A DNA stretch of 64,000 bases, from positions 123,255,784 through 123,319,783 of the forward strand of contig NC_072893.1 in the NCBI RefSeq assembly GCF_027943255.1, written 5' to 3'. Position 1 is the stretch's first letter. Each line of letters starts with the position of its first letter. The notes beneath the pieces are model-generated. The model did not search any database. It worked only from the letters and a program-made list of their open reading frames with translations, and had not been told where the DNA came from. The translations under genes and the position numbers were made by a program. Origin of the DNA: Anastrepha obliqua (Eukaryota > Arthropoda > Insecta > Diptera > Tephritidae). Of the stretch, positions 11,790 through 33,243 are shown in pieces.

Positions 11790-11839
11790 ACATGCAGCGC
11801 TAGCATCAGAGGCTATCAGCTGACCGCTGAATGAATGAT

Positions 11840-13324: not shown

Positions 13325-13909
13325 TTTATTATGTTTTAATTCGCTCGCGACTACTCGACATTCAGCGATATAAATCGCATTAGGAGTGATGTTCTTACGT
13401 AGGCGGACTAGATTGTCTATAAAACATTCTTTTGGAATCAACCATGGTGGATGACAAAGTTTACGTAATTTAGGTAGTTTTAATGACAAGTTATTTGTTT
13501 TAGCGAAAATCGCGCAAATGTATATAGCTGATTCAATTTTTGGCAATCGGATCCGTGGTGATGATGAAAACAAAACTTTTCGTAGCATGTTGTTGGAACC
13601 AAGAATAATTCTAGGGTAGAGTTTCATAGTACTGCCTTCCATGTTATCCCTTAGTGAGGGAAGACCAGATTCAGCTAATAAATTTTGTATAGGCGATGTT
13701 GGAAATGCACGAAGCGATCTTCTTATAGCTGAATGATATGGGGCAGCAAGCATTTTGAGATGGTTATTTGAGTGATGTTCATAAATTTCAATAGCGTAGT
13801 TTATTACGGAAAGTATTAAAGCGTTGACGACATGAATTAATAGAGCTGGGCCAATGAGCGAGCGCTTACATGATAGGTACTTAACAATTTTGGGTTTTTA
13901 ATAATTCTA
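13325..13909 (-). pseudogene. I-clade ORF2, post-RT region
   Basis: Minus strand reads KYLSCKRSLIGPALLIHVV, then NALILSVINYAIEIYEHHSN, then APYHSAIRRSLRAFPTSPI, which is the conserved region following the RT of I-type elements. It is joined to the RT piece at 15,236 once the Helitron is removed (YIRN|RIIKNPK), with a one-base shift in an A run. It is cut at 13,324 by the mariner-like element. Confidence 0.8.
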
Positions 13910-15235: not shown

Positions 15236-16500
15236 TTTCTTATATACTGACAGTGATCTTTAAATACATACTTACTATCTACAACTAATCCAAGAAACTT
15301 AAGTGTAGGAGAACATGTAATATTGACATTATTAAATGAAATGGTTGGAAAATTACAATTTTGTTTTCTACAAATGTGGAATGATTTAGATTTAGAGTAC
15401 GATATTGAAGCGCCTGACGAGAGGGACCAATATGATAGTTGGGAAAGGGAGTCTACAAAGGAAGATGATATGGAATTCAGGCCGGAAGATTTGAAAAGCT
15501 GGTGACATATATTAGGAAAATTTGATAGAATAGAACTAATTTCGTCGAATGCTATGGTGAACAAAATAACTGATAACAGAGATCCCTGAGGAGTTCCGTT
15601 ATCTAAAGGAAGTGTGGAAGAAGATGTACCAGAAACAAGAACTTTGATTTTACGTTTATAAAGGAAAGATTTTACGAAAATAAAAATATGGGGTCCTACC
15701 TTCCATTAAATTAGTTGTCTTAGAACTATTGTACGTTTATGCCAACACGATCAAAAGCCTTTTCAAAATCAAGCGAGAGAAGGGAAACGTGGTTTTTGTT
15801 AGATAGAGCATCACAAATGAAGTGGTCAAGGTACAAAAGAGCATCAATTGTGCTTTGGCCTTTTTTAAAAGTAACCTGATTAGAGTGAATAAGCTTATTA
15901 AATTGGAGGAACCAGGAAAGCCTTGTAGCAACAATTTTTTCTAAGAGTTTACCTAGGCAAGGAAGAAGAGAAATAGGACCATAGCTGGTAACTTCGCAGG
16001 GAGATTTGCCCGGTTTTAAAATTGGAATGATGGCGCTGGTTTTCCAGACTTGAGGGATGATGGAGGTTTGAAAAATATTGTTGTAATGTTTAAGGAGTCT
16101 ATTGATGATGGGATACGAAATTTTATCTAAACCAGGAGTTTTACCTTTCACAGAAGACAGGGCAAGATGGAGTTCAATTGAAGACAAATCAGAGTCGGCT
16201 GAATGGGATAAGGGAGGGGGTAAGTAACTATGGGAGAGAATAGATTTCTTGTTAGAAGAGTATACAGGTGAGAAATTAGAGTCAGAGGAGATGTTAAAAA
16301 AATAAGTGGCGAACTCTAAGGCTATATCCTGAGGATATAGTAGAGTGCCTTGAGAGGAGTTGAGGGAGGAGATAGGAGAGGAAGTCAGGTTACCAGATAG
16401 TCTTTTTATGTTTCTCCAAATCATTTTGGGATCAGAAGAGGAATTTATGCTGGAGGTGAGAGTCTGAAAAGATTTAATTTTTGCCAACTTAGCTTTTCTT
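15236..16500 (-). pseudogene. I-clade ORF2, reverse transcriptase domain
   Basis: Contains the finger/palm signatures IIPILKPGKSP, SYGPISLLPCLGKLLEKI, VTFKKGQSTIDALLYLDHF and LDFEKAFDRVG. After a frameshift comes NGTPQGSLLSVILF (about 15,570-15,600), then the region around LKFLGLVVDSKYVFKDH (15,240-15,330). The YxDD-containing portion is out of frame. Several frameshifts; inactive. Its 3' side at 15,236 is the Helitron insertion point. Confidence 0.8.
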
Positions 16501-17142
16501 CTAAAAATTGCATTCTTCAAACTTAGGCGAGTCAGCTGAAGAGGTTTTGAAGAATATTCTAGGTTTAGTAAAAGTTGAATTATGGTGGGAAATGTTAGCT
16601 TTGAGAGGAAAATGATCGCTTCCATGAAGATCATCAATACGATGCCAATCAACTTTGGAGGAGAGTGAAGTAGAACAGAATGTAAGGTCAATATGAGTAA
16701 AAGTGGAATGAGTGGAAAAATGGGTAGGGGAACCATCGTTAAGTACAAAACAGTCGGAGCTAAGTAGAGCGTCTTCAATTGCGCGGCCTTTGGTATTAAT
16801 TGAGGGAGAACCCCAAAGAGGACACCAGGCATTGAAATCACCAGCAAGTAAGAAAGGAGAAGAGGAAGGGGGGAGAAGGTTCAGGAAATCGGCTGAAGTA
16901 AATGTTTGCTGAGGCGGGGAATATGCACAAATTAGAATCATTTTAAAGGGGGAGGAAATTTCAAGAGAAATGGACGAGATGTTAGAATGAGGTGTAGGGA
17001 GAATGTTATGAGAGATGTTTCTTCCAATCAGGATTGCGATACCTTGCTTGCTTGATGTGTTAGACGGAAGGTTATAGAAGTGACCAATGTAGGGTTTTGG
17101 AGTATAAGCTATTAAATTGTTTGCTATACCTATGTGTTTCAT
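16501..17142 (-). pseudogene. I-clade ORF2, endonuclease domain
   Basis: APE-type endonuclease/exonuclease/phosphatase domain that nicks target DNA for reverse transcription. Visible motifs are KQGIAILIGRNI, LLAGDFNAWCPLWG (catalytic D/N), THIDLTF and the terminal GSDHFPL histidine motif. The frame shifts near 16,530 before the reverse transcriptase, so ORF2 is broken. Confidence 0.85.
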
Positions 17143-17526
17143 TTAATAATATAACAGAGGGGTTGTATTCTTTAATTAATATTTCTAGTTCAAAGTAGTT
17201 ATTTATGTAACCGTTAATGTTCCATTGAAGGACAGTTAACATCATGAAGAGAAAAGGAAAAGAAAAATAGTGTAAGGATTTATGTTTCCATGAGCGAGGG
17301 GATGTGTGAGGAGGGAACGGTAGATGGAGAAGGCGCAGAGGCGGGAGGCAAATTAATGGCAGGAGATGAAGATAGGGAGAGAGGAGAGAAGAGAGGGGAA
17401 GGAGAGTTATTTAAGGAAGATACTGAGGAAGATGGAATATTATAGCAGTCTGTAGAGATTGTATGGATGTTGGTATTAGATAAGGTGTTATGGCTTGAAG
17501 TTTTAACTATAATTTTGAGGTTGGAG

Positions 17527-17927
17527 TCATTTGAGGTTAGCTTGTTTAGGGTTTTTGGTGAAATTTGTATTTAAAGAATCGATGTTGCTGGTAGCAGTTA
17601 CATTGGCGTAAGAAAATGGTGAAGGAGTAGTTGGAGTTTGAGACTTATATAGACTGATGGCTTCCCTCATGGAGCATTTATGAATAGTTTTAATTTTGAG
17701 TAATTCTTTAGATTGGACAAATTTTGGACAGTCATTAGAAGAAGAAGGATGTTCACCACCGCAATTAGCACATTTCACTCTAGTACAATCAGAGGGGGAG
17801 GAATGGTTAGAGGGAAGATTGCAGATCACGCAAGATGGGTTGTTGTTGCAGAGCTTGGTCGTGTGACCTAACAACTGGCAATTTCTGCAGCGCATGGGAT
17901 TAGGATAATAAGGACGGATATCTAGTG
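17527..17927 (-). pseudogene. I-clade ORF1 (gag) C-terminal part with CCHC knuckles
   Basis: After RTLDIRPYYPNPMRCRNC come zinc-knuckle type cysteine/histidine groups (CRNCQLLGHTTKLC, CVICNLPSNHSSPSDC, CANCGGEHPSSSNDC), the RNA-binding part of I-element gag proteins. The upstream gag half is not here: the frame is cut at the 8-bp sequence 17,928-17,935 where the hAT end begins. It continues exactly in frame with the gag piece that ends at 28,173. Confidence 0.85.
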
Positions 17928-17935
17928 TTCGCCAG
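17928..17935 (+). repeat. 8-bp target-site duplication of the hAT, copy 1
   Basis: TTCGCCAG; its reverse complement CTGGCGAA flanks the other hAT end at 28,166-28,173. Eight bases is the hAT target size. The two copies are in inverted rather than direct orientation because the intervening DNA has been inverted. Confidence 0.85.
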
Positions 17936-18704
17936 CAGTGGCGGCGACGTCGGCCACCGCCGACGGTCTCACACCTGAGGGTGCCTCGCAGAAAAACGAG
18001 TTACCTATTTATTTTCGTTTCGCCAATCATCCTGGCTTCGCCCTAATGAGCATTCTCACACACACTGCCCGACGCGATATCTGCATTGGGTGAAAATGTT
18101 TGTAAGTAATACACACACATTACAATATGATTTATCATTTATTTATTTATTGAATTCATGGGTGTAGGTAAACCTATGAATGCAATAAATAAATCAGTTA
18201 TACGTGCAAAAGATCCTAATTTAGCATATATACGAACATAACGTGTGTGTGTGCTTTTCATTATGAGCGTCCGATACCAATATCGTATTATCGGGTAGTG
18301 TGAAAACGCTCGATTTCGCGACCGGCGCACGAGACTCTGGACGGGGAGTCCCCGTGTTGTTTAGTTTATTTATCTATATTTCATTTGTCTGTGAGAGTAA
18401 TCTTCTTCATACGGCAACTTGCAGACTCGCAAGCGCAAAGTTTCTTTTTATTGTATTGTAAAGTCATCACACCGACGTTCTAGTGCACAGTTCTATGGGA
18501 TAAAAGTTTAACGTTATTTGTTATTAATTTCATACCTAATGTTAAGGTAAGTCAACATCAACTTTTTAACGACTTTAACGATAGTATATTACAACCCAAG
18601 GCCAGAAAGTTGGATTTCCTGGCAGGTGTGAGATGATGGCCGAGACGAAGCCGAGATTGAGAATAATATTTAACCCAATTGATTCTGTTTTCGTCAAATA
18701 AAAA
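17936..18704 (+). mobile_element. hAT transposon, 5' terminal portion
   Basis: Starts CAGTGGCGGCGACGTCGG, matching the other end (CATTGGCGGCG at 28,174). It is non-coding, presumably promoter and 5' leader, and is interrupted at 18,705 by a Helentron-like unit. The rest of the element is at 28,174-30,953 on the opposite strand. Confidence 0.7.
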
Positions 18705-18741
18705 AGAGGTTGTCTGTAAAGTGGGTTTACTGACGATAGTT

Positions 18742-18751
18742 TAACGTGATA
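18742..18751 (+). repeat. LOA target-site duplication, left copy
   Basis: TAACGTGATA, repeated exactly at 24,243-24,252. The sequence straddling both copies, minus the element, matches the uninterrupted right arm at 32,365-32,380 (reversed). Confidence 0.9.
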
Positions 18752-18833
18752 GGTAGGTAGGTAGGTAGGGTGGTTGTCGCAAGACACACTTAGACCTTCA
18801 GCAGGTCCATTGTGATACCACTGGAGCTTATCC

Positions 18834-21800
18834 TTACTCTACGTGTTCCTTTTCAAACCATTCGGTTGCTTTAATAAACGAGCAGAGCTTCGTTAGTTTT
18901 AGATGGGCTATGTCCGCTACATCGGTTAGAAATGCTGTATCGAGAGTGCGCAGCCTTCTCATAGCTAGGCTTTCACACTCACATAAAAGGTGTCTGACTG
19001 TTTCCTCTTCTTCTGTATTAAGACAGCTTCTACAGAAATCGAAGTAAGGGAGTCCTAACCTTCTAGCGTGGCTGCCTATTAAGCAATGACCAGTTAAAAC
19101 ACCTATCATTTTTCTTATAGATTCTCTGTTGAATCGTAGCAAGATCTTCGATCGACCGCTGTTCCAGTTCGGCCATGTCTGTCTGCTTAGTTCGCATGTT
19201 GTGAGGTTTTGCCAGATTGTATTTACCTTTTTGATGGTTTCCCTGTCTATAAGTAATTTACAAGTGGCTATAGGCATGGGTGTCAGCGCCTTATCCGGTT
19301 CGAGACCGAGCGTTGTACCGATTCTTGCGAGTTCATCCGCCTTACAATTTCCTGCAATGTTTCTGTGGCCTGGTACCCAGATAAGGTGCACCTTGTAGCA
19401 CTTAGATACGTCATCTAGTAGTTTAAAACATTCTAGAACTGTTTTTGACGAGTGTGTTTTTGATTCCAGCGCATTTATTGCTGCTTGACTGTCCGAGTAA
19501 ATGAAGACTTCATTTGCGGATAATACTCTCGTTTTTATCTCTTTAAGTCCCTCTTTTATGGCAGTGACTTCCGCCTGAAATACACTGCAATGATCAGGCA
19601 AGCGAAATGATTGGCATACTCCGAGTTTGTCGGAGTAGACCCCTCCGCCTACTTGGTTGTCTAGTTTTGAGCCATCTGTGTAGATGTTTAAGTCATTTAT
19701 CTTGACAATGAGCCCGTTATCCCATTCCTCTTTGGAAGGAAATACTGTGACAAAGGATTTATCGAAATTGATGTCCTTGGTCTTACAGAAATCCGTTGTG
19801 CTGGGAATGCAGGGGAATTGTTCTAAAATTGAGGAGTGCCCTCTTTGGTACGTTCTGAGTAGGCCGATTTCTCTTAGTCTGAGAGTTGCTTTGGCAGCTG
19901 TTTGCTTACCGTACTGCTCTATTGGTAGAATGTTAAGAATAATATTTAGTGCATCTGTGGGTGTGGTTCTGAGGGCCCCGCAGATGCAAAGACTGGCCAT
20001 TCTTTGTACGTGTGCCATAGTTCTTTTGACGTACAATTTATCTAAAGCTGGCCACCATACTAATATGCCGTATGTTAGGATTGGTCTGACAATTGCCGTG
20101 TAAAGCCAGTATACGATAGATGGGGAGAGACCCCAACTTAGTCCTATTAGCTGTTTACAAGAGTATAGTGCTATTGTCGCCCTTTTTACTCTATCTTCGA
20201 CATTTGCCTTCCATGTTAGCTTTCGGTCTAGTATTAGACCTAGGTAGCGGGCCTCATCACTGAATGACAGTGCCGTTCCACCTAGAGTCGGAGGAATTAT
20301 ATTTGGAATTTTGTGTTTCCTGGTAAATAGGATGAGTTCAGTTTTATTGGGGTTGACGCTTAGCCCGTTTGCTTTTGACCAGTTTTCAACCATGTTTAGT
20401 AAATCCTGCATGACTTCTATGAGTGTATTGGGGAATTTCCCCCTTACTACCAATGCAACATCGTCCGCATAGGCTACAACGTGTTGTCCTCTCTCCTCTA
20501 GGCTCTTTAGCAATGAGTTTAGTGCCAGCACCCATAGGAGAGGGGACAGCACACCGCCTTGAGGTGTTCCTCTGCTAACTTTTTTCTTGATCTCTGAGTC
20601 CCCTAGGGTTGCGATCACCAATCTGCTCAAGAGCATGTTTTTGATGAACTCAACCAGAGCGCCAGAGATCCCGAAGTCCGTCAGTGCCTTTATTATGGTA
20701 TCCGGTAGGATGTTGTTAAATGCGCCCTCGATATCTAGAAAAGCTACCAGTGTGAATTCTTTATTATACATTGACTTCTCGATTTCTGTAACAAGTGAGT
20801 TAAGTGCTGTTTCGGTTGATTTCCCTTTACAGTACGCATGTTGTGAGATGCTGAGCTTATAAGGGCTGATGTTAGCCCTAATATGCTCTTCTAAAATTCT
20901 TTCTAATGTTTTTAGCAGAAAGGAGGATAGGCTTATTGGCCTGAAATCCTTAGGTGTCGTGTGTGAACTTTTTCCCGCTTTAGGGATAAAGACCACTTTT
21001 ACCTCTTTCCATGTTGATGGGACACTTTTCAGTTTCAGAGCGGCCTTAAATATGGCCGTCAACCACTCCATGATGTAGTTTAGTGAATGTTGTATTTGGG
21101 CCGGGAATAATCCATCTGGGCCCGGTGATTTAAATGGTTTGAACGTGTTCACTGCCCAGGTTATCCTAGTTTCAGTGATTATTTCTTCAATGTCAGAGTT
21201 TGGTCTTTCTGTACCATTGTTGATTAACACGTTAGGTGATTCGTTGCTGGGAAAGTGTGTGTCCACTAGCAACTTCAGAGTTTCGTCACTCGAAGTAGTC
21301 CAACTCCGGTCCGGTTTTTGGAGGTATCCGGTGGTATAGTGTTTTTTTGAAAGGATTTTACGCAGTCTGGAGGCCTCTGTGGTTCCTTCAATTTCTCCAC
21401 GGAACGTTCTCCAACCAGACCTTTTCGCTTTCCTAACTTCTTTTTTGTAAATTTTTAGCTTAGTGTAGTAGCAGTCCCAGTCTTTACTCTCTCGTGTCGC
21501 TTTCGCTCTATTAAACTGTCTTCTGCTGTCGTTTCTTAGTGTAGACAGGTCTTCTGACCACCAGGGCGGCTTTTTCTTCCCCTTATACTTAATTAAGGGG
21601 CAAGCCTTGTTTAGCGCAGTTCTACAGACCTCCGTAAGGATTTGTACGTGTTCGTTCAATGATTCTCTGTCTTCAATATTAATATTTTGGGAGTTTGGAA
21701 GTCTTTCCTTAAGTTCCCGTTTATATATATGCCAGTTGGTCTTTTTCAAGTTCCTGCTGGCGGGCGGGGCCCGTGAGTTTTTTCCCCCAAATTTTATTTC

Positions 21801-22442
21801 TATGTAACGATGATCGGAGTAAGAGTGTTCATTCAGAACCCTCCACTGCGTCATCTTTTCGTAGAGGGTTTGACAAACTAGCGTAATATCAAGAACTTCT
21901 TGTCTATTGCGCGTAATAAATGTAGGTTCGTTGCCTTTGTTACACACTAAAAGCTTACTACATATAATATAATTAAAGAGAGACTCACCTCGTTCGTTTG
22001 TATCCGAGCTCCCCCATACGGTATGGTGGGCATTGGCATCACCTCCTAGGGCTAGTTTGCGGTTGTGTGCTTTGCAGTCTTCCACAAGGCTTCTTATTAG
22101 CGGCGACGGCAGTGGACCTGTGTCGTCTCCGGCAAAGTAGAACGAGGTTAGCCAGATGTTGCTTCCGCTCACTTCCCAGCTAACCGTCGTAGTATCTGCG
22201 TTACTGAAATTTTGAATCATAAATATATTAAGATGTGCTTTTGCCATTATGCATGCTCTTTTAGTACCTTCACCATTGGTCTTGTATACTTTATACCCTG
22301 ATGTCCTCAGACCGCAGATTTCGCCATTCCGTACCCAGGGTTCCTGGATGAGGACTACGTCCGGCTGATCTTCTGCCAGACGCTCCAGGAGGGCAAGGCA
22401 GGCTTCTTTACAGTGATGAAGGTTTATCTGTAGAAGATGCAT
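18834..22442 (-). CDS. LOA-type ORF2: endonuclease-RT-RNase H polyprotein
   Basis: Intact 1,202 residues. Residues 1-220 are an APE-like endonuclease (LQINLHHCKEA, IQEPWV, LALGGDANAHHTVWGS, and SYSDHRYIEI with the catalytic D-H). About 430-720 is the reverse transcriptase (KVVFIPKAGK, FRPISLSSFLLKTLERIL, AFLDIEGAFNN, RGTPQGGVLSPLLW, catalytic VAYADDVALV). About 930-1,060 is RNase H (DLNIYTDGSKLDNQVGGGVY, VFIYSDSQAAINAL, WVPGHRNIAGNCKADELA, all catalytic acids visible). A C-terminal CRSCLNTEEEETVRHLLCEC zinc motif follows. The enzyme nicks chromosomal DNA and copies element RNA in place. With ORF1 intact and a perfect target duplication, this copy is potentially mobile. Confidence 0.95.
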   Translation of the reverse strand: MHLLQINLHHCKEACLALLERLAEDQPDVVLIQEPWVRNGEICGLRTSGYKVYKTNGEGTKRACIMAKAHLNIFMIQNFSNADTTTVSWEVSGSNIWLTSFYFAGDDTGPLPSPLIRSLVEDCKAHNRKLALGGDANAHHTVWGSSDTNERGESLFNYIICSKLLVCNKGNEPTFITRNRQEVLDITLVCQTLYEKMTQWRVLNEHSYSDHRYIEIKFGGKNSRAPPASRNLKKTNWHIYKRELKERLPNSQNINIEDRESLNEHVQILTEVCRTALNKACPLIKYKGKKKPPWWSEDLSTLRNDSRRQFNRAKATRESKDWDCYYTKLKIYKKEVRKAKRSGWRTFRGEIEGTTEASRLRKILSKKHYTTGYLQKPDRSWTTSSDETLKLLVDTHFPSNESPNVLINNGTERPNSDIEEIITETRITWAVNTFKPFKSPGPDGLFPAQIQHSLNYIMEWLTAIFKAALKLKSVPSTWKEVKVVFIPKAGKSSHTTPKDFRPISLSSFLLKTLERILEEHIRANISPYKLSISQHAYCKGKSTETALNSLVTEIEKSMYNKEFTLVAFLDIEGAFNNILPDTIIKALTDFGISGALVEFIKNMLLSRLVIATLGDSEIKKKVSRGTPQGGVLSPLLWVLALNSLLKSLEERGQHVVAYADDVALVVRGKFPNTLIEVMQDLLNMVENWSKANGLSVNPNKTELILFTRKHKIPNIIPPTLGGTALSFSDEARYLGLILDRKLTWKANVEDRVKRATIALYSCKQLIGLSWGLSPSIVYWLYTAIVRPILTYGILVWWPALDKLYVKRTMAHVQRMASLCICGALRTTPTDALNIILNILPIEQYGKQTAAKATLRLREIGLLRTYQRGHSSILEQFPCIPSTTDFCKTKDINFDKSFVTVFPSKEEWDNGLIVKINDLNIYTDGSKLDNQVGGGVYSDKLGVCQSFRLPDHCSVFQAEVTAIKEGLKEIKTRVLSANEVFIYSDSQAAINALESKTHSSKTVLECFKLLDDVSKCYKVHLIWVPGHRNIAGNCKADELARIGTTLGLEPDKALTPMPIATCKLLIDRETIKKVNTIWQNLTTCELSRQTWPNWNSGRSKILLRFNRESIRKMIGVLTGHCLIGSHARRLGLPYFDFCRSCLNTEEEETVRHLLCECESLAMRRLRTLDTAFLTDVADIAHLKLTKLCSFIKATEWFEKEHVE

Positions 22443-23880
22443 CAGCTGTTAGCGTAATGTCTGGGTCTTCTTTGCTTTCGCATAAAAGTTCCCTTTCGGA
22501 ATACTTACGCTGTTGTGTGTGGTACTTACCCTCCCGTTCGAAGTACAGCCTCCCTAAGCCCATTTCTGAGCCTGAAGAGGCGTATTCTTCTTCGGTGGGC
22601 CGGTCGTCTTCGCTCATTGGCTCGGTTTCGCTCATGGGTTCTGGTTCGCCCATGTGCTTTTCACCTTCCTTAGTGGCGAGGAACTCAATTGCATCTGTGT
22701 CTGTTTTGTAAATGTGAAGCTTCACCTTTACAAAACCGTATCTCAGATGCCCATCGCATTTCGCTAATGGTTCGATTGAATTCTCTGTGAGGAGCAGGAG
22801 AGCCTGCATGGTGGCGCGCTTCTGCTCTTTCGATTCTTCCGCGCTATTTTTGCTGGTGAGAGTTTTGACATACCTCCATTCCTGCGTTGGGATGTCCGGA
22901 TTGCAGACCCGAATGAGCTTCATAATCTCATCCGGGTCTTCGACGGTTGAAGGTAACCAAACCCTTGCTCGCGGCCTGGACGGAATATCCTTCCTGTCCA
23001 CGACCACTAGCTTGGCATTTGGGTACACTTCGCCGACTTTGGAGATGGCCTCTTTATACAGTTGAACCGATCTCTCATCGTCGCAAGCTATAATTTTTAT
23101 CTGGCCTTGGTGCCAGCCTAAGTCTTCGCACGCAGGCGGGGGACCGGGGTTCTCCAGAATAACTTTCAGTGCCACTTTCGTTAGCTCGGCCTCGATCCAT
23201 TTCCACTGGGCCCTGGGGATCATACCTTCTGGGTGGTTCTCGTCCAGGACTCCTATGATCAGGCGGTCTTTTGCAACCTCCGCAAATGATCTTCTGGGCG
23301 TCACGCCCATTGATTTGTGCCTTTTTGCGTTTGGCTTATTTTCCTCCGAGGACCGCTGTCGTTTCGGAGCCGATTGTGTTGGCTTGAAGTCAGGGTTGAA
23401 ATCAGGAATGATCGCTTTCGCTCTATCAATCGCCTCTTTCAACTCCTGTGTCATTTCACTTTCCTTTGGGTGAGTTTCGTGCACCCTCCTTAGGAGCCTA
23501 GCCGCGTTTCTGCGATCCTGGTAGCTCGCTTTCGCTGGGTCTACCACCCTCACAAGCGGCCATCCTTCGGTACCGGAGCTAGCAGTAGCATTGCTTCCGG
23601 TCGGGACCGTTTTTGGGGGCTGAATCGCAGTTGACTGCCGGGCCAGTGCCCCCCTACTTGTACTTGGACCTGTGTCCAGTCCTGAGTACGTGTCAGCTGT
23701 CCTCGCTTTCGCTGAGGCTGTCGTTGCGTGTTTTGATCGACTTATTAAGCCGATGGATGGCGTTTTCTTTGAGCTCGGTGCAACCGTTGCTCTTGTTGCG
23801 GAACTGTTAGTTCCTGTCGGTCTATTAGAGGGAGGACCGATCTCCTTTTTTTTATTTATTTTTTTAAAGTCTGCTTGCAT
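22408..23880 (-). CDS. LOA-type ORF1 protein (DUF4780)
   Basis: Intact 490-residue protein starting at an ATG. The first ~180 residues are Ser/Thr/Ala/Lys-rich and probably disordered. Residues ~205-330 (RLIIGVLDENHPEGMIPRAQ, ENPGPPPACEDLGWHQGQ, IACDDERS...IPSRPRARVWLP) match the DUF4780 domain found in ORF1 of LOA-like insect retrotransposons. The C-terminal third is acidic (EPEPMSETEPMSEDD). No CCHC knuckles. ORF1 proteins of this group are thought to coat element RNA and aid nuclear/target delivery. It overlaps ORF2 by 35 nt in another frame, implying reinitiation or frameshift for ORF2. Confidence 0.9.
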   Translation of the reverse strand: MQADFKKINKKKEIGPPSNRPTGTNSSATRATVAPSSKKTPSIGLISRSKHATTASAKARTADTYSGLDTGPSTSRGALARQSTAIQPPKTVPTGSNATASSGTEGWPLVRVVDPAKASYQDRRNAARLLRRVHETHPKESEMTQELKEAIDRAKAIIPDFNPDFKPTQSAPKRQRSSEENKPNAKRHKSMGVTPRRSFAEVAKDRLIIGVLDENHPEGMIPRAQWKWIEAELTKVALKVILENPGPPPACEDLGWHQGQIKIIACDDERSVQLYKEAISKVGEVYPNAKLVVVDRKDIPSRPRARVWLPSTVEDPDEIMKLIRVCNPDIPTQEWRYVKTLTSKNSAEESKEQKRATMQALLLLTENSIEPLAKCDGHLRYGFVKVKLHIYKTDTDAIEFLATKEGEKHMGEPEPMSETEPMSEDDRPTEEEYASSGSEMGLGRLYFEREGKYHTQQRKYSERELLCESKEDPDITLTADASSTDKPSSL

Positions 23881-24242
23881 TTTGGACCCACGAGTGTCGG
23901 AGAAAGGATGTCCGCCCGTGCATAGCTCCGAACTACACGGGTAAGGCTAATTATTACGGAGGGCGCCAGTTATCCGTAAGCTCCGTTCGAGACTTGGTTA
24001 TTTTATAGAAGGGCCCCAAGCCTGACAGATTCTCGGCACGGGTCGCATCACACCTTAATCCAGCCCTTCACCCCCGACCACGTTAAAGGTACTTTGAGTA
24101 GTGCTGTACTATTGAGGAGTATCGAACCCTACCCATAGTACCCTTAGCTTAGCTAAGTACCTCCTGAAAATAGGAAAACTGTGGTACTTATTACCAGCTG
24201 GCACCCTCGGGGAGGGTTCAGTGGAGGATTTTCGCCAACCCA

Positions 24243-24252
24243 TAACGTGATA
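24243..24252 (+). repeat. LOA target-site duplication, right copy
   Basis: Exact second copy of TAACGTGATA. The continuing ACGTCATAAGAAAATATTG matches the related units at 26,217 and, reversed, 32,345. Confidence 0.9.
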
Positions 24253-24368
24253 ACGTCATAAGAAAATATTGATTGAATGGTTGCATTTTTCAAAAGAAAA
24301 GTTTAATTTTATTTGTTTGATAGATATTTTGTATGGATATAGAGAATGAGCTAACATTAACATAACAT

Positions 24369-25142
24369 AATATACTTTAACATAACATAACATAACATAA
24401 CATAACAAAACATAACATAACATAACATAACATAACATAACATAACATAACATAACATAACATAACATAACATAACATAACATAACATAACATAACATAA
24501 CATAACATAACATAACATAACATAACATAACATAACATAACATAACATAACATAACATAACATAACATAACATAACATAACATAACAAAGCATAACATAA
24601 CATAACATAACATAACATAACATAACATAACATATCATAACATAACATAACATAACATAACATAACATAACATAACATAACATAACATAACATAACATAA
24701 CATAACATAACATAACATAACATAACATAACATAACATAACATAACATAACATAACATAACATAACATAACATAACATAACATAACATAACATAACATAA
24801 CATAACATAACATAACATAACATAACATAACATAACATAACATAACATAACATAACATAACATAACATAACATAACATAACATAACATAACATAACATAA
24901 CATAACATAACATAACATAACATAACATAACATAACATAACATAACATAACATAACATAACATAACATAACATAACATAACATAACATAACATAACATAA
25001 CATAACATAACATAACAAAGCATAACATAACATAACATAACATAACATAACATAACATATCATAACATAACATAACATAACATAATATAACATAACATAA
25101 CATAACATAACATAACATAACATAACATATCATAACATAACA
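24369..25142 (+). repeat. pentanucleotide (CATAA/TAACA) array, ~770 bp
   Basis: More than 150 copies of a 5-bp unit with a few substitutions (AACAAAG at about 24,586 and 25,015; CATATCAT at about 24,633 and 25,056). The repeated order of variants about 425-430 bp apart points to duplication of a block inside the array. The long minus-strand frames of repeating Met-Leu-Cys-Tyr-Val are an artefact of a 5-bp repeat, not genes. The array lies in the middle of a Helentron-like unit, as central tandem repeats do in some such elements. Confidence 0.95.
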
Positions 25143-26166
25143 TGCTGTTCAAGCAAGGTAACGACGCATGAGCAAGATAACGACGCATTTTTTGGTGCGT
25201 GCAGCCGGCTACATAGAATTATTAGACGTTATCACGTCAAAAAATAATAATATTATATTTAACATTAAAACAACAGGTATTATTAACAAACTTGGATTTA
25301 TTTTAAATTCTTCAAGTAAATCAAATTAATAATAATCAATAAGAAGGCATATGCAAATACAAATACGTGAATTTATATATGTACATATGCGCATATACAT
25401 ACATATATACGCTCACTTAAGTAGGAGAGAGCAAGATGTCGAACGTTGCCGTTCGTTTGCTTTGTTTGCTTTGTCGTTCGTTCCGCGCTTTCGCTTGCAG
25501 TTCATTCAAGGTAACGAGAAATGAGCAAGGTAACACTAATGAGCAAGGTAACGACACATTTTTTCGTGCGTGCAGCCGGCTAAATCGAATTATAAGACGT
25601 TATCACGTCAATATTTTGACTACAAACTAACAGGTTAGAATGCAGAGACTAGTATTGTGACGTTTCGTATTGAATTATCGGCTCTAGCATGTATATTACT
25701 GGACTGCCGGCCACGAAAGTCTTGTAATCCGCTAGAGCGCGCTGCGGCTCGAGTAGGCCTCAAAAGTCGCTCTTCCTGGAGTCAAATGCGGCAGAAAGAC
25801 CGTACTTTCAGCGGAGAGATCAAGAAAAATTCAATAGTTACCTATATCTTTTATATGTCGTAAATACTCGTACTATTAATCAAGAAATAGATTCGATTTT
25901 ATATTTACCCAGATAAGTAAAGTACCTACCTACTTATTTTTAAACCTGCGCTAGTGATGATGATTCAAAGTTGGCAGCTGACTCGTAAATTTTGTATAGT
26001 CGTTTTTTTCATTTCCCACAAAAAGTTTGACAAAAAATGTTGTATGTATCGTAATCCATGGTTTTCGTATTTTCACTTTATCCAGGACCTCCCTGTGTAA
26101 TAATCATTAAGCAATTCTTATAATCTGTATCCTGTAACATTGCGTTCTTACCAAACTTAACTATAA

Positions 26167-27366
26167 AGAGGTTGTCTGTAAAGTCGGTTTACTGACGATA
26201 GTTTAACGTGACAACGTCATAAGAAAATATTGATGGAATGGTTGCGCTTTTCAAAACAAAATTTTAATTTTATTTGTTTGATAGATATTTTGTATGGATA
26301 TAGAGGAGGAGGTAAATGGAATTGCAATGGAATAGGTCAAGTTACATTTAGACAAACGTGAAAAATGACGAAACATTTATCAAATTCATGAAAGATATCT
26401 TCAATTTCGATTGTGCATCAGACGTTAATAAGTCAACAACACTAAGAGGCATCATCATCGATTTGACTTTCTCAAGACACATTACACTTGAAACACTCCC
26501 TTTCATTTCCTATTTTTCCTATCATCGTTTATTCTCAACACAGAATTGGTTCGTTACCATGCACACAGGAAGAAGGCATATGCAAATACAAGTATGTGAA
26601 TTTATATACAAATGCGCATATACATACATATATATGCTCACTCAAGTAAGACAGAGCCAGATGTCGAACGTTGCCGAACGCGTTGACCGATTGTGCTCTT
26701 TGTCGTTCATTCCGCGCTCTCGCTTGCAGTTCAAGCACATTAGCTTACATTTGCTTGCGTACGGAACAAATTCATATATTTGATATGTCCATATGACTTG
26801 TATGCTTCTTTACATATAGATTTGTTCTTTTTGAAAATTGCGCGAAATTGTATATGTATATGCATGTTTATATACATATATTAGTATACAACATATCTTA
26901 TAAGGTATGTGGTAAATATTACCATACATTTTTTCCTTCATATATAATAAAAAAAATTAATAATAATAACATTAAAACAGCAGGTATTATTAACAAACTT
27001 GGTTTTATTTTAAATTCTTCAAGTAAATCAAATTAATAATAATCAATAAGAAGGCATATGCAAGTACAAATACGTGAATTTATATATGTACATATGCGCA
27101 TATACATACATATATACGCTCACTTAAATAGGAGAGAGCAAGATGCCGAACGTTGCTTTTCGTTTGCTTTGTTTACTTTGTTGTTCGTTCCGCGCTTTCG
27201 CTTGCAGTTCATTCAATGCAATGAGCAAGGTAACGACAAATGAGCAAGGTAACGGCAATGAGCAAGGTAACGACATATGAGCAAGGTAACACTAATGAGC
27301 AAGGTAACGACACATTTTTTCGTGCGTGCAGCCTGTTAAATCGAATTATAAGACGCTATCACGTCA
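26167..27366 (+). mobile_element. Helentron-like unit H2 with endonuclease remnant
   Basis: Starts AGAGGTTGTCTGTAAAGTCG like the termini at 18,705 and (reversed) 32,407, and ends GACGCTATCACGTC at 27,366. Near the 5' end lies ACGTGACAACGTC, the inverted form of the 3' palindrome, a layout like the subterminal inverted repeats of Helentrons. Between about 26,340 and 26,530 the plus strand encodes SDVNKSTTLRGIIIDLTFSR then FISYFSYHR, the C-terminal end of a Helentron-type endonuclease. Blocks with GAAGGCATATGCAA and tandem GAGCAAGGTAACGACA units recur in the other arms. The flank on the right is the I-element 5' fragment. Confidence 0.55.
27190..27320 (+). repeat. tandem GAGCAAGGTAACGACA units
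   Basis: Five or so 16-17-bp units (ATGAGCAAGGTAACGACAA and variants). The same array has two to three units at 25,505-25,555 and about seven, reversed, at 31,560-31,685, so copy number varies between related arms. Confidence 0.85.
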
Positions 27367-27633
27367 AAAAGTGGAGTTACGAGAGGAAAGGCATCAAAAA
27401 AGAATCCAAATTTGGTACAAGTTAATCTTATAAATTAGAAACAACATTCGCTACCGAGCTGTCAAACCGTACGGTCGCATTTAATTCGTTTGTGCTTTAT
27501 ACTTGCTTCTTTCTGTCTGCGCTACTTAACCTAAGTTTGCTTTTAAAGTTTTCCCACGTGCTTTTTTTGTATTTCTGTTAAAGCATTTAACTTACAACAA
27601 TTTTTTTTGACAAAACCGAAATATTCCATCAAA

Positions 27634-28173
27634 ATGCCCCCTGGGGCCAACAAGCTGGGGGATAATAGGTTTGCACCTTTACCCTCATCTCCCAAAAGCA
27701 AAAGGAAAAAACCAATAACCTCAACTCTTGATGTGTTCCCGGAATTACCTATAACCAAGAAGGATGATCCTAAGTATCTGGTTTTAAAATCTCAGGACGA
27801 CACTAAACCGATCTCATCCACATCTTGTTTTGCTGTCTACAAAGGTATTCAATCAATTAGTAAAGATGTTAACAAAATCACAGCTCTTCGAGATGGTAGT
27901 CTACTAATACTTGTAAAAAGTCAAAAAATTGCCGAAAAATTTTTGTCCACTACATATCTGCCTGGCGCTGGTGCTGTTGTATTTTCACTATATGTTTTCC
28001 ATTTATATGCCAACTTGTTGATGGGGAAATAATTGATAGTCTTAAAGATCAAGGCGTTACTGCGGTTCACAAATTCACCAAATTAAACAATGGCTCGCGG
28101 GCACCTACTGGCGCTTTATTACTGACATTCGATAAATACACTTTGCCTAGTCGTATTGAAGTGGCCTGGCGAA
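27634..28173 (+). pseudogene. I-clade ORF1 (gag) N-terminal part
   Basis: Begins at ATG 27,634 (MPPGANKLGDNRFAPLPSSP). It continues through PKYLVLKSQDD and ITALRDGSLLILVKSQKIAE, typical of the I-clade gag RNA-binding fold. After a frameshift near 27,985 come GVTAVHKFTKLNNGSRAP and LLLTFDKYTLPSRIEVAW. It ends exactly at the hAT insertion. The next residues (RTLDIRPYYPNPMRC) are found at 17,927 on the other strand. Inactive. Confidence 0.85.
28166..28173 (+). repeat. 8-bp target-site duplication of the hAT, copy 2
   Basis: CTGGCGAA, reverse complement of TTCGCCAG at 17,928-17,935. Confidence 0.85.
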
Positions 28174-30953
28174 CATTGGCGGCGCTAGACCAAATGTGTA
28201 CGTCGGCGACATCAACTTCGCGAGGCCTCTTACTTCGCAATGAAAAAAAAACCGTAAAGTTAAGTGAGCCAAATTATAAAATAATTTATGAGTATAACGA
28301 GTTTTATTGTTAATAAAATGATGACAAAAAATAATTACACACAGAAATTAAAATAGTCGAACTTTTCGGCTTTAGCGTCACTGAAGTTTTTCAGGATTGT
28401 GTCGTAGTTAAGTCTAGCCGCTATTTCAGCTTCGATTGACAGAACTCGCGGATAGTCTATCTTGGCTCATTGTGCTTCTCAAGTAGGTTTTTATCAATTT
28501 CAACATTGAGAAGCTTCTCTCAGCGGAAGCTGTGCTGACCGGAACTGTGAGCATGATTCTAATTGTAATATAAACCTTTGGATATATAATATTTCTTCTA
28601 AATTATTTTCTAAAATGTATTGGATGAGTTGTTTCGCGTCGTTGATAGAGTCTAGTGAATTAGTTTTTAAAAGCTGAAGTTCTTCATATAGTTCGAAAGG
28701 CTCTATGTCACTATTTTCGCCTTCCCGAAGTCTTGTACCTAAATCAGTACAATGTTTGAGAAGATCCTCTTTTGGCATAGATTTCAAATAATTGATATGA
28801 TAAACAAAACCAAATTGCTCAAAATATTCATTGAGCGCTGTAAATCGACATTCGGTATCGACTATTATAGCATCTACCATTGTGCTAAAATAATTAACTC
28901 CGAACTGCATTTCAGGAGATTCAACTGGTTCATCAGTATGTTCGTAACTAAGCATTCTTTTTTCCTGGCTATTCTTTTTTCCTTAAATTGAGACTGAATT
29001 TCATAAGTACTTTTCTCCACAAATAATCTAGCTTCTGTTACGCTTCTTTCAAATCCTGAATTTCGGAATTCTTGAATTCAGCTACAAAATGAACGTAAAG
29101 TCTCAATAGCGACTTGCAAGTTGACTTGAACCGATTGCCATAGTTTATTTATATTGTTTACACGTAGCAAAACCTCATACCACACGTGTAAGGCAACAAT
29201 AAACTCAAAAGTTAACATTTCCTTTAGGACTGCTTCACTGTCGCTTAGAGTTTCGGTATCATCAGATTTATTTTTTAGTTCATTCACACATTCGATGACA
29301 TCATCAAATTGTAAAAATATTGCTTTTACTGCTTCGATTCTACTCTCCCATTTCGTTTCAGACAGAGTTTGTAAAGTCAATTTTAATTTACTTTTTACTA
29401 TCTCCCAACGCTTGCTTGACTTTGAAAACAGCACATAGATTTTATTGATAAAGCCGAAAAATGTTTTGGCTGTCGTTAAAGAGTTAGCTGCATCTATCAA
29501 AAGTAAATTCCAACTGTGGCATCCGCGTGGTGTGAAGAATGCTCTTGGATTTTTGTTGAGTATTCTTATTCTGATACCTTTGTTAATTCCGACCATATTG
29601 GCGCCATTATCATATCCCTGTCCTCGACAGTTTTGGAAATCTAGACCATTTCTTTCCAGTTCTTGTAACATTGATTTTGTTAAATACTCTCCTGTTGCTT
29701 CTGCGACGTCAATGCAATGTTCTTCTACAGCGCCAGTTGACAAATTGGAAAATCTTAATATTATTGACATTTGTTCAACATGGCTTACGTTCCTGGTACA
29801 ATCGAGCAAGATGGCGTAGTATTTTGCTTGTTTAACCCTGTGTATAATTTCGTTAATAACTAATTTAGACATTAAAACAGCTAATTCGTTTTGGATGTCG
29901 TGGCTCAGATAATGTTGATTAAGTTGCTTTTCATTAATACGTTGCATATGTTCCCGTAATGTCGAATCATATTTAGATAACAACTTAACTAAGTCTAGAA
30001 AATTGTCAGAATTTTTACTATTGTTCAATTTCAAGGATTCGCGATGAGCTCTAAATGCCAAATTGTGTGAGGCCAAGTAGTTTATTATATCCATCAGTCT
30101 TTCAAACAAACCATACTAATACTTTTGGGATTCCCTAATCAATCTCTAGTTATCCTCGTCTATTGTTTTACCGTGTTTGATTCCTTTAAAGAGTTCCATC
30201 TATTTCATCATGCACTCCATTCAGTCATGCACTCCTTGACTTCGTTCATGTCTTTGCAGTATCCGACTCAGATCATTCCAATCACAACATCCTTCTTTTA
30301 CTATCTGTGTCTGCAATTGTGAAAAAAGTCTACATGGAAAGCAATAAACTTTATCTTGAGACATGGAGTAAGTTAACCATCTGCGATGTTGCGTTTCGCC
30401 GTTACTCAATTTTCTAGTATAATGAAATTTAGAAAAATTTCTTTTACTTTGGTGTTTTGAGTAATTTTCATCAGATTTCTCTAGGTCTTGATCGCGACCG
30501 TTTTGAATTAAGTCATGGCGCTGCGCATCATTTAGTGGCAATACCCACTTCGCCGGATCTAGGTCTATTAATGGCTCGCTTAAATGAACTTCTTGCTCTT
30601 GATTTTCTGACTCACACATATACTCACTTACTAACTCTTTATTGGATTCAGAAATTTGGGTCACAGCAGATTCACTCGATGTTGAAGGTAAAGTTGTATC
30701 AGAAATTTGACTAAAAGTTTCATTGAACTCTGTAACTGATTCTGTTTCAGAAAATAAAGATTCATCACATGACTCTGAAGTAGTGGCACCTGAAGAAGGC
30801 TTTTTAAGAAATTTCATCATACTGGAACTCAGAGCGTGGTTGGATATAACAGTTTCAGCCTTTCTTTTTCTTTTTGACGCACCGGATTCCCATTTTCTCC
30901 CTACATCTCTGTCTCTGGAGGGTTCTCCAGACATGATAATCTTAAATATTTTT
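28174..30953 (-). mobile_element. hAT transposon, coding and 3' terminal portion
   Basis: The 3' terminus reads CATTGGCGGCGCTAGACC inward from 28,174, matching CAGTGGCGGCG at 17,936. It includes the broken transposase. The 5' leader immediately upstream of the ATG (30,935-30,953) joins the inner edge of the right arm of the inverted duplication. Together with 17,936-18,704 this makes an element of about 3.5 kb before any Helentron insertions. Confidence 0.8.
28334..30934 (-). pseudogene. hAT transposase, ZMYM1-like (DUF4371), frameshifted
   Basis: N-terminal 237 residues (30,934-30,221): Lys/Arg-rich start, acidic Ser-rich linker, then a TTF-type zinc-finger region (DPAKWVLPLNDAQRHDLI, RRWLTYSMSQDKVYCFPCRLF). 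After a frameshift, 343 residues (30,109-29,078) carry the DUF4371 catalytic region: AILLDCTRNVSHVEQMSII, CRGQGYDNGANMVGINKGI, PRGCHSWNLLLIDAA and LSETKWESRIEAVKA. A third frame (28,955-28,500) and a fourth to the stop at 28,334 carry the C-terminal dimerisation block LTVPVSTASAERSFSMLKLI then TYLRSTMSQDRLSA. At least three frameshifts; otherwise well preserved. The transposase would cut at the CAKTGGCGGCG ends and generate 8-bp duplications. Confidence 0.85.
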
Positions 30954-32407
30954 TAGTTAAGTTTGGTAAGAACGCAATGTTACAGGATACAGATTATAAG
31001 AATTGGTTGATGATTATTACACAGGGAGGTCCTGGATAAAGTGAAAATACGAAAACCATGGATTACGATACATACAACATTTTTTGTCAAACTTTTTGTG
31101 GGAAATGAAAAAAACGACTATACAAAATTTACGAGTCAGCTGCCAACTTTGAATCATCATCACTAGCGCAGGTTTAAAAATAAGTAGGTAGGTACTTTAC
31201 TTATCTGGGTAAATATAAAATCGAATCTATTTCTTGATTAATAGTACGAGTATTTACGACATATAAAAGATATAGGTAACTATTGAATTTTTCTTGATCT
31301 CTCCGCTGAAAGTACGGTCTTTCTGCCGCATTTGACTCCAGGAAGAGCGACTTTTGAGGCCTACTCGAGCCGCAGCGCGCTCTAGCGGATTACAAGACTT
31401 TCGTGGCCGGCAGTCCAGTAATATACATGCTAGAGCCGATAATTCAATACGAAACCTCACAATACTAGTCTGTGCATTCTAACCTGTTAGTTTGTTGTCA
31501 AAATATTGACGTGATAACGTCTTATAATTCGATTTAGCTGGCTGCACGCACGAAAAAAGGTGTCGTTACCTTGCTCATTAGTGTTACCTTGCTCATTTGT
31601 CGTTACCTTGCTCATTTGTCGTTACCTTGCTCATTGCCGTTACCTTGCTCATTTGTCGTTACCTTGCTCATTGCCGTTACCTTGAATGAACTGCAAGCGA
31701 AAGCGCGGAACGAACGGCAAAGCAAACAAAGCAAACGAACGGCAACGTTCGACATCTTGCTCTCTCCTACTTAAGTGAGCGTATATATGTATGTATATGC
31801 GCATATGTACATATATAAATTCACGTATTTGTATTTGCATATGCCTTCTTATTGATTATTATTAATTTGATTTACTTGAAGAATTTAAAATAAATCCAAG
31901 TTTGTTAATAATACCTGTTGTTTTAATGTTAAATATTATTATTTTTTGACGTGATAACGTCTAATAATTCTATGTAGCCGGCTGCACGCATCAAAAAATG
32001 CGTCGTTATCTTGCTCATGCGTCGTTACCTTGCTTGAACAGCATGTTATGTTATGTTATGTTATGTTATGTTATGTTATGTTATGTTATGTTATGTTATG
32101 TTATGTTATGTTATGTTATGTTATGTTATGTTATGTTATGTTATGTTATGTTATGTTATGTTATGTTATGTTATGTTATGTTATGTTATGTTATGTTATG
32201 TTATGTTATGTTATGTTATGTTATGTTATGTTATGTTAAAGTATATGTTATGTTAATGTCAACTCATTCTCTATATCCATACAAAATATGTATCAAACAA
32301 ATAAAATTAAAATTTTCTTTTGAAAAATGCAACCATTCAATCAGTATTTTCTTATGACGTTATCACGTTAAACTATCGTCAGTAAACCGACTTTGCAGAC
32401 AACCTCT
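30954..32407 (-). repeat. right copy of the inverted duplication
   Basis: Reversed copy of 18,705-26,163 minus LOA. The same order of blocks is seen: outer AGAGGTTGTCTGCAAAGTCG, ACGTGATAACGTC, pentanucleotide array, two GACGTTATCACGTC ends, the GAAGGCATATGC block, GAGCAAGGTAACG units, then the ~550-bp inner block ending CCAAACTTAACTA next to the transposase ATG. Few substitutions separate the two copies, so the duplication is young relative to the I element it disturbs. Confidence 0.85.
32042..32240 (+). repeat. pentanucleotide (TTATG) array, ~200 bp
   Basis: Counterpart of the 24.4-25.1 kb array in the right arm, in reverse orientation and about a quarter of its length, without the variant units seen in the long array. 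Confidence 0.95.
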
Positions 32408-32410
32408 TTT

Positions 32411-33243
32411 TTTACTATTCTATTTTATATTATTTTGTTAAATTTTTTTTGTTTATTGTGTCTTATTCTCTTTTTCAATTAATTTGATTACTCAGTCAAA
32501 CGAACCATAACGGGAATATCCGTTTTCATTCCATATTTCTGCTAACGAACCGGAAGATAGCAGAATTTGGTATTGCTCCAGGGTTGCATTCATACTTGCC
32601 AGTAATATTTACATGTTAAACATACTTAGATAATTTAAAAAGCTCGCCTAAGTGCTCTACTAACACTTGTAAACAAACTAAAAACCGTATTTAATCAATT
32701 ATTACAAACAAATTCATATATCCACTTAAATCGCAGGCCCTAATTCAGCATTCAACTCCTCTTGCACTTACAGTGGCAGCATCACATGTGGAACATACCA
32801 TTCCGCTATTCAGTGATGCCATTAGAACCTAAAGTTATACATTTACCAGAGAACGTAATTTACGTTCTCTGCATTTACGAGCGAATTTGAGGGATTTTTT
32901 TCCAGTGAAACTAAATTATTATAGTTAACTAATTTATGTTGAATTTGATTAAAAAGTATTGCGTCGCATTTATAGAAGGCATTTTGTCGTTACCTTGATT
33001 ATTATTATTTTTTTTTTTAATTTCTGCTGAGTGGACAGGTGAGACTGGCACAAGAATTTAATCCAGCAAAGTACAGTCGGTTTAATATAAGTACATTATT
33101 TTTCAACTTAACTATTTAATTTTTAGGGCTGGAGAAAACCTTTTTGTTGATATATGTAAATATGGATACATTTGTTATAAAAAACATATATATGAATATT
33201 AGTTCAAGATTAAAAATAAATACGAAAACCGTTTATAAGACAT
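32411..33243. other. AT-rich spacer with one palindrome
   Basis: No gene seen. Holds the 26-bp palindrome at 32,846-32,871 (listed separately). Confidence 0.4.
32846..32871. repeat. small palindrome, copy 1 (CCAGAGAACGT type)
   Basis: CCAGAGAACGTA, then its inverted form TTACGTTCTCTG. Related palindromes lie at 52,082, 52,149 and 60,313. Confidence 0.75.

What the first reader, a model, noticed from the sequence alone, without database searches (positions are those of the whole stretch)
17928..32407. Local inversion exposed by a split hAT transposon and a split I element
The I-element gag is cut into two pieces on opposite strands: ...EVAW ending at 28,173 (+) and RTLDIRPYYPNP starting at 17,927 (-). 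The cut in each is the same 8 bp (CTGGCGAA / TTCGCCAG), bordered by the two ends of one hAT (CATTGGCGGCG and CAGTGGCGGCG). An ordinary hAT insertion would leave both halves of the host in the same orientation. Inverting the segment between about 26.16 and 30.95 kb restores a single I element, a single hAT and a direct duplication. The sequence shows the pieces and matches; the inversion is inference. The breakpoints coincide with Helentron-unit ends, so ectopic recombination or aberrant transposition of those units is a plausible cause.
Basis: partly seen in the sequence, partly recalled or inferred. Interest (0 to 1): 0.85.

Follow-up and report, generated by a model that had tools for sequence, protein, structure and literature searches.

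The report
Small inversion splitting nested jumping genes
A stack of jumping genes nested inside one another records that a roughly 5-6 kb piece of this animal's chromosome was flipped, with a small part of one element duplicated at its end: a tidy example of an already familiar kind of chromosome scar.

Summary
The I-element gag is cut by a hAT whose two halves, each with the same 8-bp target duplication, lie 10 kb apart in an order that only an inversion reconciles. In the window's own genome (836 Mb, unnamed), 10 of 10 fetched I copies carry the gag uninterrupted with the 8 bp once, and 6 of 6 two-ended hAT copies examined have matching direct 8-bp duplications. The ~550 bp taken as a Helentron end (25,612-26,163 and 31,505-30,950) is the middle of the hAT: it joins the transposase half directly in 15 of 19 fetched hAT places that hold it, and 4 of 4 fetched Helentron copies end before it. 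So 30.95 kb is not a breakpoint; the junctions are 26,163|26,165 and about 32,409|32,413. An inverted duplication of [Helentron + hAT middle] flanks the inverted DNA. This is the known footprint of an inversion formed by staggered breaks or template switching; ectopic recombination between arms duplicated earlier is the main rival. No second copy of the right flank was found in the assembly, so no uninverted haplotype could be compared. Ordinary in kind; interest modest.

The parts
27445..28173 (+). 5' end and first part of the I-element gag (gagA); I element begins at 27,445; last 8 bp are the hAT target duplication CTGGCGAA
   Evidence: 9 I copies aligned at the start begin at this base (6) or one base later (3) (L026 not in that listing); gagA/gagB contiguous in 10 of 10 copies
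11767..17935 (-). Rest of the I element (gagB from 17,935 down, endonuclease, RT, RNase H remnants); interrupted by 13,911-15,235 and by a mariner-like element about 12,466-13,325; last ~43 bp of the I 3' end missing
17936..18702 (+). hAT right piece (hATR), terminus CAGTGGCGGCG; the family TIR is CAGTGGCGGCGCTAG, this copy lacks 13 bp just inside it
18703..25611 (-). U1: HINE/Helentron-like unit inserted in the hAT; true 5' end at 25,611, hairpin 3' end at 18,703; carries a ~790 bp TAACA array and a nested LINE
   Evidence: empty site in other hAT copies; hairpin and termini
18751..24242 (-). LINE nested in U1 (ORFs of 512 and 1204 aa open) with 9-bp TSD TAACGTGAT at 18,742-18,750 and 24,243-24,251; U3 lacks it
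25612..26163 (+). hAT middle, copy a (hATmid), still joined through U1 to hATR; followed by junction J1
   Evidence: native hAT sequence in other copies
26163..26168 (.). Junction J1: hAT middle joined to the 3' end of U2 (CTTAACTA-T-AAAGAGG); U2 terminal A-run only 3 long, against 5-10 in the six other copies measured
26165..27383 (-). U2: full-length HINE/Helentron-like unit of an abundant family
   Evidence: termini shared by 4 of 4 fetched copies; 1324 first-look candidates, 40 scored (window's own included) at 99-100% over 163 bp
28174..30949 (-). hAT left piece (hATL) with broken transposase (DUF4371), terminus CATTGGCGGCG at 28,174
30950..31505 (-). hAT middle, copy b, natively joined to hATL; no breakpoint at 30.95 kb
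   Evidence: same join in 15 of 19 other hAT places that hold it
31506..32409 (+). U3: second copy of U1 (without the LINE), natively joined to hAT middle copy b
   Evidence: U3+hATmid against U1+hATmid: 98.9% over 1019 aligned sites after the array, 96.0% over 148 sites before it
32409..32413 (.). Junction J2: 3' end of U3 (where hATR should follow) joined to flank in an A7 run; no second copy of the flank found in the assembly

Best explanation
A real chromosomal micro-inversion with an inverted duplication at one end. Inferred order of events: an I element inserted; a hAT inserted in its gag (8-bp TSD); a Helentron-like unit (U1) inserted in the hAT; then the stretch from the right-hand flank of the locus to the hAT's middle was inverted, and in the process the piece [hAT middle + Helentron] became present at both ends of the inverted DNA in opposite orientation; later a LINE inserted in one copy. 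The pieces, their native neighbours and the TSDs are shown; the inversion follows from them. The mechanism is inferred: staggered breaks with fill-in, or break-induced replication with template switching, with A-runs of 6-7 bp at the inferred ancestral breakpoints as possible microhomology and U-U homology possibly helping at J2. All of it is read from one assembly.
For: Same 8-bp TSD and complementary gag halves on opposite strands, one open frame when joined. I copies elsewhere are intact at the site, 10 of 10 fetched. hAT family: 6 of 6 two-ended copies have direct 8-bp TSDs; the join at 30,949/30,950 is native in 15 of 19 fetched places that hold the 3' end of the hAT middle; hATR joins the hAT middle without U in 4 places by strict tally, a fifth (L032) with 13 bp unaligned. 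In the genome search the two window copies of the hAT middle are 99% alike over 468 bp; the other matches are 76-94%, except a 30-bp piece at 100%. Both lack extra sequence that lies at the same point in 15 fetched places, 387 to 1,738 bp long, mostly about 450; one other place, L031, lacks it too. Four of 4 fetched U copies have no hAT beyond their end. U1+hATmid and U3+hATmid differ at 11 of 1019 sites after the array (one of them at the junction), whereas pieces of U1 and U3 match the four fetched U copies at about 81-98%, the long pieces mostly 85-93%. Of the two arms only U1 holds the LINE; U3 has its target once. [quoted passage not shown]
Against: No uninverted allele or sister species was available; no second copy of the right flank was found, so whether [hATmid+U] was single before the inversion is not observed. 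One side of each junction is a Helentron 3' terminus, which a random staggered break would not predict, although the termini seen carry A-runs. J1 has an unexplained T and only 3 A. The arms are less alike before the array (6 differences in 148 sites) and differ by 79 gap columns after it. Raw reads across the junctions were not available. All 5 polarisable differences between the hAT-middle copies are derived on the U1 side, more one-sided than equal ageing predicts (sign test about 0.06 two-sided, n = 5, worked by hand).
Confidence: 0.58

Rival explanations
1. Two steps: a copy of [hAT middle + Helentron] was first placed beside U2 in opposite orientation (for example an aberrant, 5'-extended Helentron transposition), then ordinary ectopic recombination between the two ~1.5-2 kb inverted arms flipped the segment between them.
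For: The inserted piece would end exactly at the Helentron 3' hairpin end and at an A/T run, which suits Helentron insertion (PMC4067079, passages); inverted arms of 98.9% identity (after the array) about 4.8 kb apart are good substrates; opposite orientation and exchanged flanks are among the signs given for Galileo inversions (PMC2775673, passages).
Against: Needs an extra event; the hAT piece lies at the 5' side of the Helentron, whereas Helitron capture by terminator bypass, as recalled, takes the 3' side; none of the fetched hAT-middle loci outside the window has a U match beside it and none of 4 fetched U copies has hAT beside it; a chimeric pattern of the arms could not be tested.
Confidence: 0.3
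2. Simple ectopic recombination between two independently inserted Helentrons.
For: Helentron-like units lie in opposite orientation at both junctions.
Confidence: 0.05
3. Assembly artefact: the segment between two near-identical inverted repeats was put in the wrong way round, or haplotypes were misjoined.
For: Inverted repeats are a classic cause of misorientation (recalled); reads were not available.
Against: The window has no N and lies in a 134.5 Mb contig; the arms differ by array length, by 18-bp repeats and by a 5.5 kb LINE, and are separated by 4.8 kb of other sequence, so it is not a read fold-back. Re-orienting the middle alone would still leave an orphan hAT middle next to U3.
Confidence: 0.06
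4. Two unrelated hAT insertions in two I copies that happen to lie near each other.
For: None found.
Against: Complementary gag halves with no overlap beyond the 8 bp, and identical TSD; 10 of 10 fetched I copies lack a hAT at this base.
Confidence: 0.01

Closest known systems
[quoted passage not shown] e.g. D. subobscura O7, PMC7584159, passages read)
   Same: Inverted DNA flanked by an inverted duplication of a piece inferred to have been single copy before.
   Different: Here the inversion is about 5-6 kb, lies within nested transposons, and is polarised from one assembly by repeats instead of by comparing inverted and uninverted chromosomes.
Galileo-generated inversions of D. buzzatii (PMC2775673, abstract and passages read)
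   Same: Homologous mobile elements in opposite orientation at the junctions with exchanged flanks.
   Different: The repeat arm extends past the element into hAT sequence on one side; a chimeric pattern was not demonstrated.
HINE / DINE-1-type non-autonomous Helentrons (PMC4067079, passages read)
   Same: Palindromic subterminal repeats, 3' hairpin, A/T-run insertion without TSD, tandem repeats inside.
   Different: A family of this genome not matched to a named one here; no Rep/helicase was looked for in the genome.
hAT DNA transposons (family features recalled)
   Same: 8-bp direct TSD, TIR, DUF4371-bearing transposase fragment.
   Different: This copy is split by the inversion and internally deleted.

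Membership tests
hAT transposon | 8-bp target site duplication | tested here: met
   Window: CTGGCGAA both sides; other copies 6 of 6 with both ends, 4 exact, 2 with one mismatch, out of 9 examined
hAT transposon | Terminal inverted repeats | tested here: met
   CAGTGGCGGCGCTAG ... CTAGCGCCGCCACTG in family copies; window ends 10 of first 12 bases alike
hAT transposon | hAT-type transposase | tested here: inconclusive
   DUF4371 E 4.6e-15 in one of three scanned fragments; no dimerisation domain in them
Helentron/HINE | Subterminal inverted repeats 2-4 nt from the 5' end and ~38-60 nt from the 3' end | tested here: met
   TT-GACGTGATAACGTC at the 5' end; a near-identical palindrome about 38 nt from the 3' end
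Helentron/HINE | 3' hairpin 8-35 nt from the end | tested here: met
   GTC.GTAAA-loop-TTTAC.GAC predicted in U1, U2, U3
Helentron/HINE | Insertion in TT/T-run without TSD | tested here: met
   U1 empty site CAAATAAAATATTTTG in L012, joined likewise in 3 further places; A-runs at the seven 3' ends measured
Helentron/HINE | Moved by a Rep/helicase partner | not tested
   No such ORF recognised by eye in the ORF list of the window; genome not searched for it
TE-mediated ectopic-recombination inversion | Element copies in opposite orientation at both junctions with exchanged flanks | tested here: met
TE-mediated ectopic-recombination inversion | Repeat arms limited to the mobile element | tested here: not met
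   Arm contains ~550 bp of native hAT next to the Helentron
TE-mediated ectopic-recombination inversion | Chimeric element copies | tested here: inconclusive
   No parental uninverted copies; 5 of 5 polarisable sites derived on one arm
[quoted passage not shown]
   U1+hATmid versus U3+hATmid, 11 differences in 1019 after the array
Staggered-break or BIR/MMBIR inversion | Duplicated piece single copy in the uninverted state | not testable with these tools
   No uninverted allele found in the assembly

The most novel reading that the evidence does not exclude
The inversion was made by Helentron activity itself: nicking at the hairpin 3' ends of two Helentron-like units in opposite orientation (U1 and U2) started a rolling-circle event that ran the wrong way and ended in an inversion plus inverted duplication, because one side of both junctions is a Helentron 3' terminus.
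Probability: 0.1. Interest if true: 0.55.

Novelty: new member of a known kind. Interest (0 to 1): 0.3.

Why it matters
It shows that nested transposons can serve as a built-in record: the TSD of one element and empty sites of the others elsewhere in the genome give the ancestral order, so a micro-inversion too small for synteny maps can be polarised from a single assembly. The same logic (split element, same TSD, halves in inverted order) could be scanned genome-wide to count such events. The case itself is a neutral-looking scar inside repeats.

Tried and rejected
Rejected: that 24,243-26,167 and 30,950-32,409 are Helentron to their ends; other hAT and U copies show their last ~550 bp are hAT. 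Rejected after checking: that U2 lacks its tail; U2 is full length, and the longer 'tail' of U1/U3 is hAT. I first read the units in the wrong orientation; the hairpin and subterminal repeats put the true 3' end at 18,703/26,168/32,409. Considered: capture of hAT by Helentron 3'-terminator bypass; weakened because the hAT piece lies on the 5' side. Considered: that U2 inserted after the inversion into the A-run of J1; its short A-run (3, against 5-10) speaks mildly against it, but it is not excluded.

Led nowhere: relatives of gag and hAT in viral contigs (none confirmed) and of the U terminus (0 matches); an I-element TSD as a second proof of the inversion (the I 3' terminal ~43 bp not found in the window; no convincing TSD; L059, fetched for this, gave no match to the window's I and reads like another LINE). 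Never answered: own-genome searches with 27,384-27,460, 25,240-25,611 and 30,500-30,949, and with a pattern for the pre-inversion join.
Full report
What was checked. The window is G000:C2:123,255,784-123,319,783 of an 836 Mb genome in 204 contigs. The finding's key marks are where it says: CTGGCGAA at 28,166-28,173 (+) and 17,928-17,935 (-), with hAT ends CATTGGCGGCG at 28,174 and CAGTGGCGGCG at 17,936, each end once in the window; the 8-mer alone occurs once more, at 9,610 (-). Joining the gag flanks with one copy of the 8 bp gives a single open frame through EVAW-RTLDIRPYYPNP towards the zinc knuckle (Pfam zf-CCHC_6, just under its cut-off); the other two frames have stops.

Empty sites. One search listed 40 matches: the window itself, 26 other hAT-side and 13 other I-side. 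The 13 I-side matches all stop at the 8 bp. Ten were fetched; in all 10 gagA and gagB are contiguous, overlapping by exactly the 8 bp (L026 covers only 172 bp of the gagA side). Nine of them, shown, begin at the base that corresponds to 27,445 (6) or one base later (3), so the window's I element is complete at its 5' end. Ten of the 26 hAT-side places were fetched. Nine were examined for TSDs: 6 had both ends, and 6 of 6 had matching 8-bp direct duplications (4 exact, 2 with one mismatch); one lacked the right terminus, and two had no left end in the table used. The family TIR is CAGTGGCGGCGCTAG; the window copy lacks 13 bp just inside its right end.

The hAT middle. The stretch 25,612-26,167 and its inverted near-copy 31,505-30,950 looked like the end of a Helentron. 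Other hAT copies without any U match carry it inside the hAT, between the right piece and the transposase piece. Six of the ten copies fetched (L009, L010, L013 to L016) are shorter derivatives with no match to it and with no match to the first ~930-1,020 bp of hATL. Among the 19 fetched places outside the window that hold its 3' end, the join hAT middle | hATL is exact (0-1 bp) in 15; in the other 4 (L031, L033, L037, L038) an insertion or deletion lies there; 4 more places listed were not fetched. The join hATR | hAT middle, the empty site of U1, is present in 4 places by strict tally and in a fifth (L032) with 13 bp unaligned; many other copies are a variant lacking both sides of that site (hATR 720 joined to hAT middle 95). 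At one point in the hAT middle 15 fetched places have 387 to 1,738 bp more (mostly about 450) than the two window copies; L031 lacks it as well. In the whole-genome search the two window copies are 99% alike; the other matches are 76-94%, except a 30-bp piece at 100%.

The Helentron-like units. Four of the 39 other places listed were fetched. All four begin with an A-run and GAGGTTGTCTG and end at GACGTTATCACGTCAA, with unrelated flanks and no hAT. U2 is a full-length member; over its first 163 bp the 40 scored matches (window's own included) are 99-100% alike, of 1324 first-look candidates, but over longer stretches the best alignments to the four fetched copies are 90.5-95.8%. Hairpin, subterminal palindromes and insertion at a TT match the description of HINE/Helentron elements (PMC4067079, passages), with the 3' end at 18,703 (U1), 26,168 (U2) and 32,409 (U3).

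What is there. Read on the + strand: I remainder (-) / hATR / U1 with LINE / hAT middle a | J1 | U2 / I 5' and gagA (+) / hATL / hAT middle b / U3 | J2 | flank. Undoing the inversion leaves the order flank - U2 - I 5' - gagA - hAT (with U1) - gagB, and one surplus [hAT middle + U]. The surplus and its partner form inverted arms: 11 differences in 1019 aligned sites after the array (one at the junction; 79 gap columns set aside) and 6 in 148 before it. They give the longest inverted match in the window. U3 lacks the LINE and has its target once, so the LINE came later or was never in that copy.

How it probably arose. A path hATR > U1 > hAT middle > (J1) U2 > I 5' > gagA > hATL > hAT middle > U > (J2) flank reproduces the locus with two joints. 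J1 is CTTAACTA-T-AAAGAGG; J2 is in an A7 run; the sites hAT middle|hATL and U1|hATR are A6 runs. A/T runs of 6 or more make up 1749 of 64,000 bases, but the seven Helentron 3' ends measured all have an A-run (3 to 10), so only the hAT-middle site is independent support for microhomology. This is the footprint predicted by staggered-break and BIR/MMBIR models (PMC7584159, passages). A two-step history (copied arm, then ectopic recombination) gives the same end structure and cannot be excluded. All 5 polarisable differences between the hAT middles are derived on the U1 side (a sixth lies at the junction; three of the five rest on only 5 other copies), which would suit error-prone synthesis of that arm, but the number is small.

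Limits. One assembly only; the flank 32,413-33,000 has no second copy apart from three weak matches (79-80% over 65-74 bp), in a search that skips very common words, so no uninverted haplotype was found. Raw reads, sister species and populations were not available. The genome search answered 4 of 36 requests.

Known or new. Inversions with inverted duplications, and inversions with mobile elements at the junctions, are well described (PMC2775673 abstract and passages; PMC12368964 abstract and section list; PMC7584159 passages). Two searches (20 of 466 papers listed, 12 of 35 listed) showed no title on Helentrons or Helitrons causing an inversion; those papers were not read for this, so no claim of absence is made.

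Noticed in passing
18,751-24,242 (-): A LINE with two long open frames (512 and 1204 aa; endonuclease, RT, RNase H in the latter) and a perfect 9-bp TSD, ending in a CCTA-type microsatellite; looks recent.
   Followed up: partly
24,352-25,143 and 32,043-32,255: TAACA arrays of about 158 and 42 copies inside U1 and U3, so the array length differs between the two arms.
   Followed up: no
26,165-27,383: U2 belongs to a very abundant Helentron-like family (1324 first-look candidates; the 40 scored are 99-100% over 163 bp).
   Followed up: partly
25,612-26,163 versus 31,505-30,950: All 5 polarisable differences between the two hAT-middle copies are derived on the U1-side copy.
   Followed up: yes
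11,767: The I element stops about 43 bp short of its usual 3' end and is followed by unrelated sequence without a recognisable TSD.
   Followed up: partly
13,911-15,235 and about 12,466-13,325: Two further insertions in the I element's ORF2, the second a mariner-like element (named by eye from its ORF).
   Followed up: no
43,097-43,558 and 44,518-44,983: Another inverted pair (470 bp, 93%) in the window.
   Followed up: no
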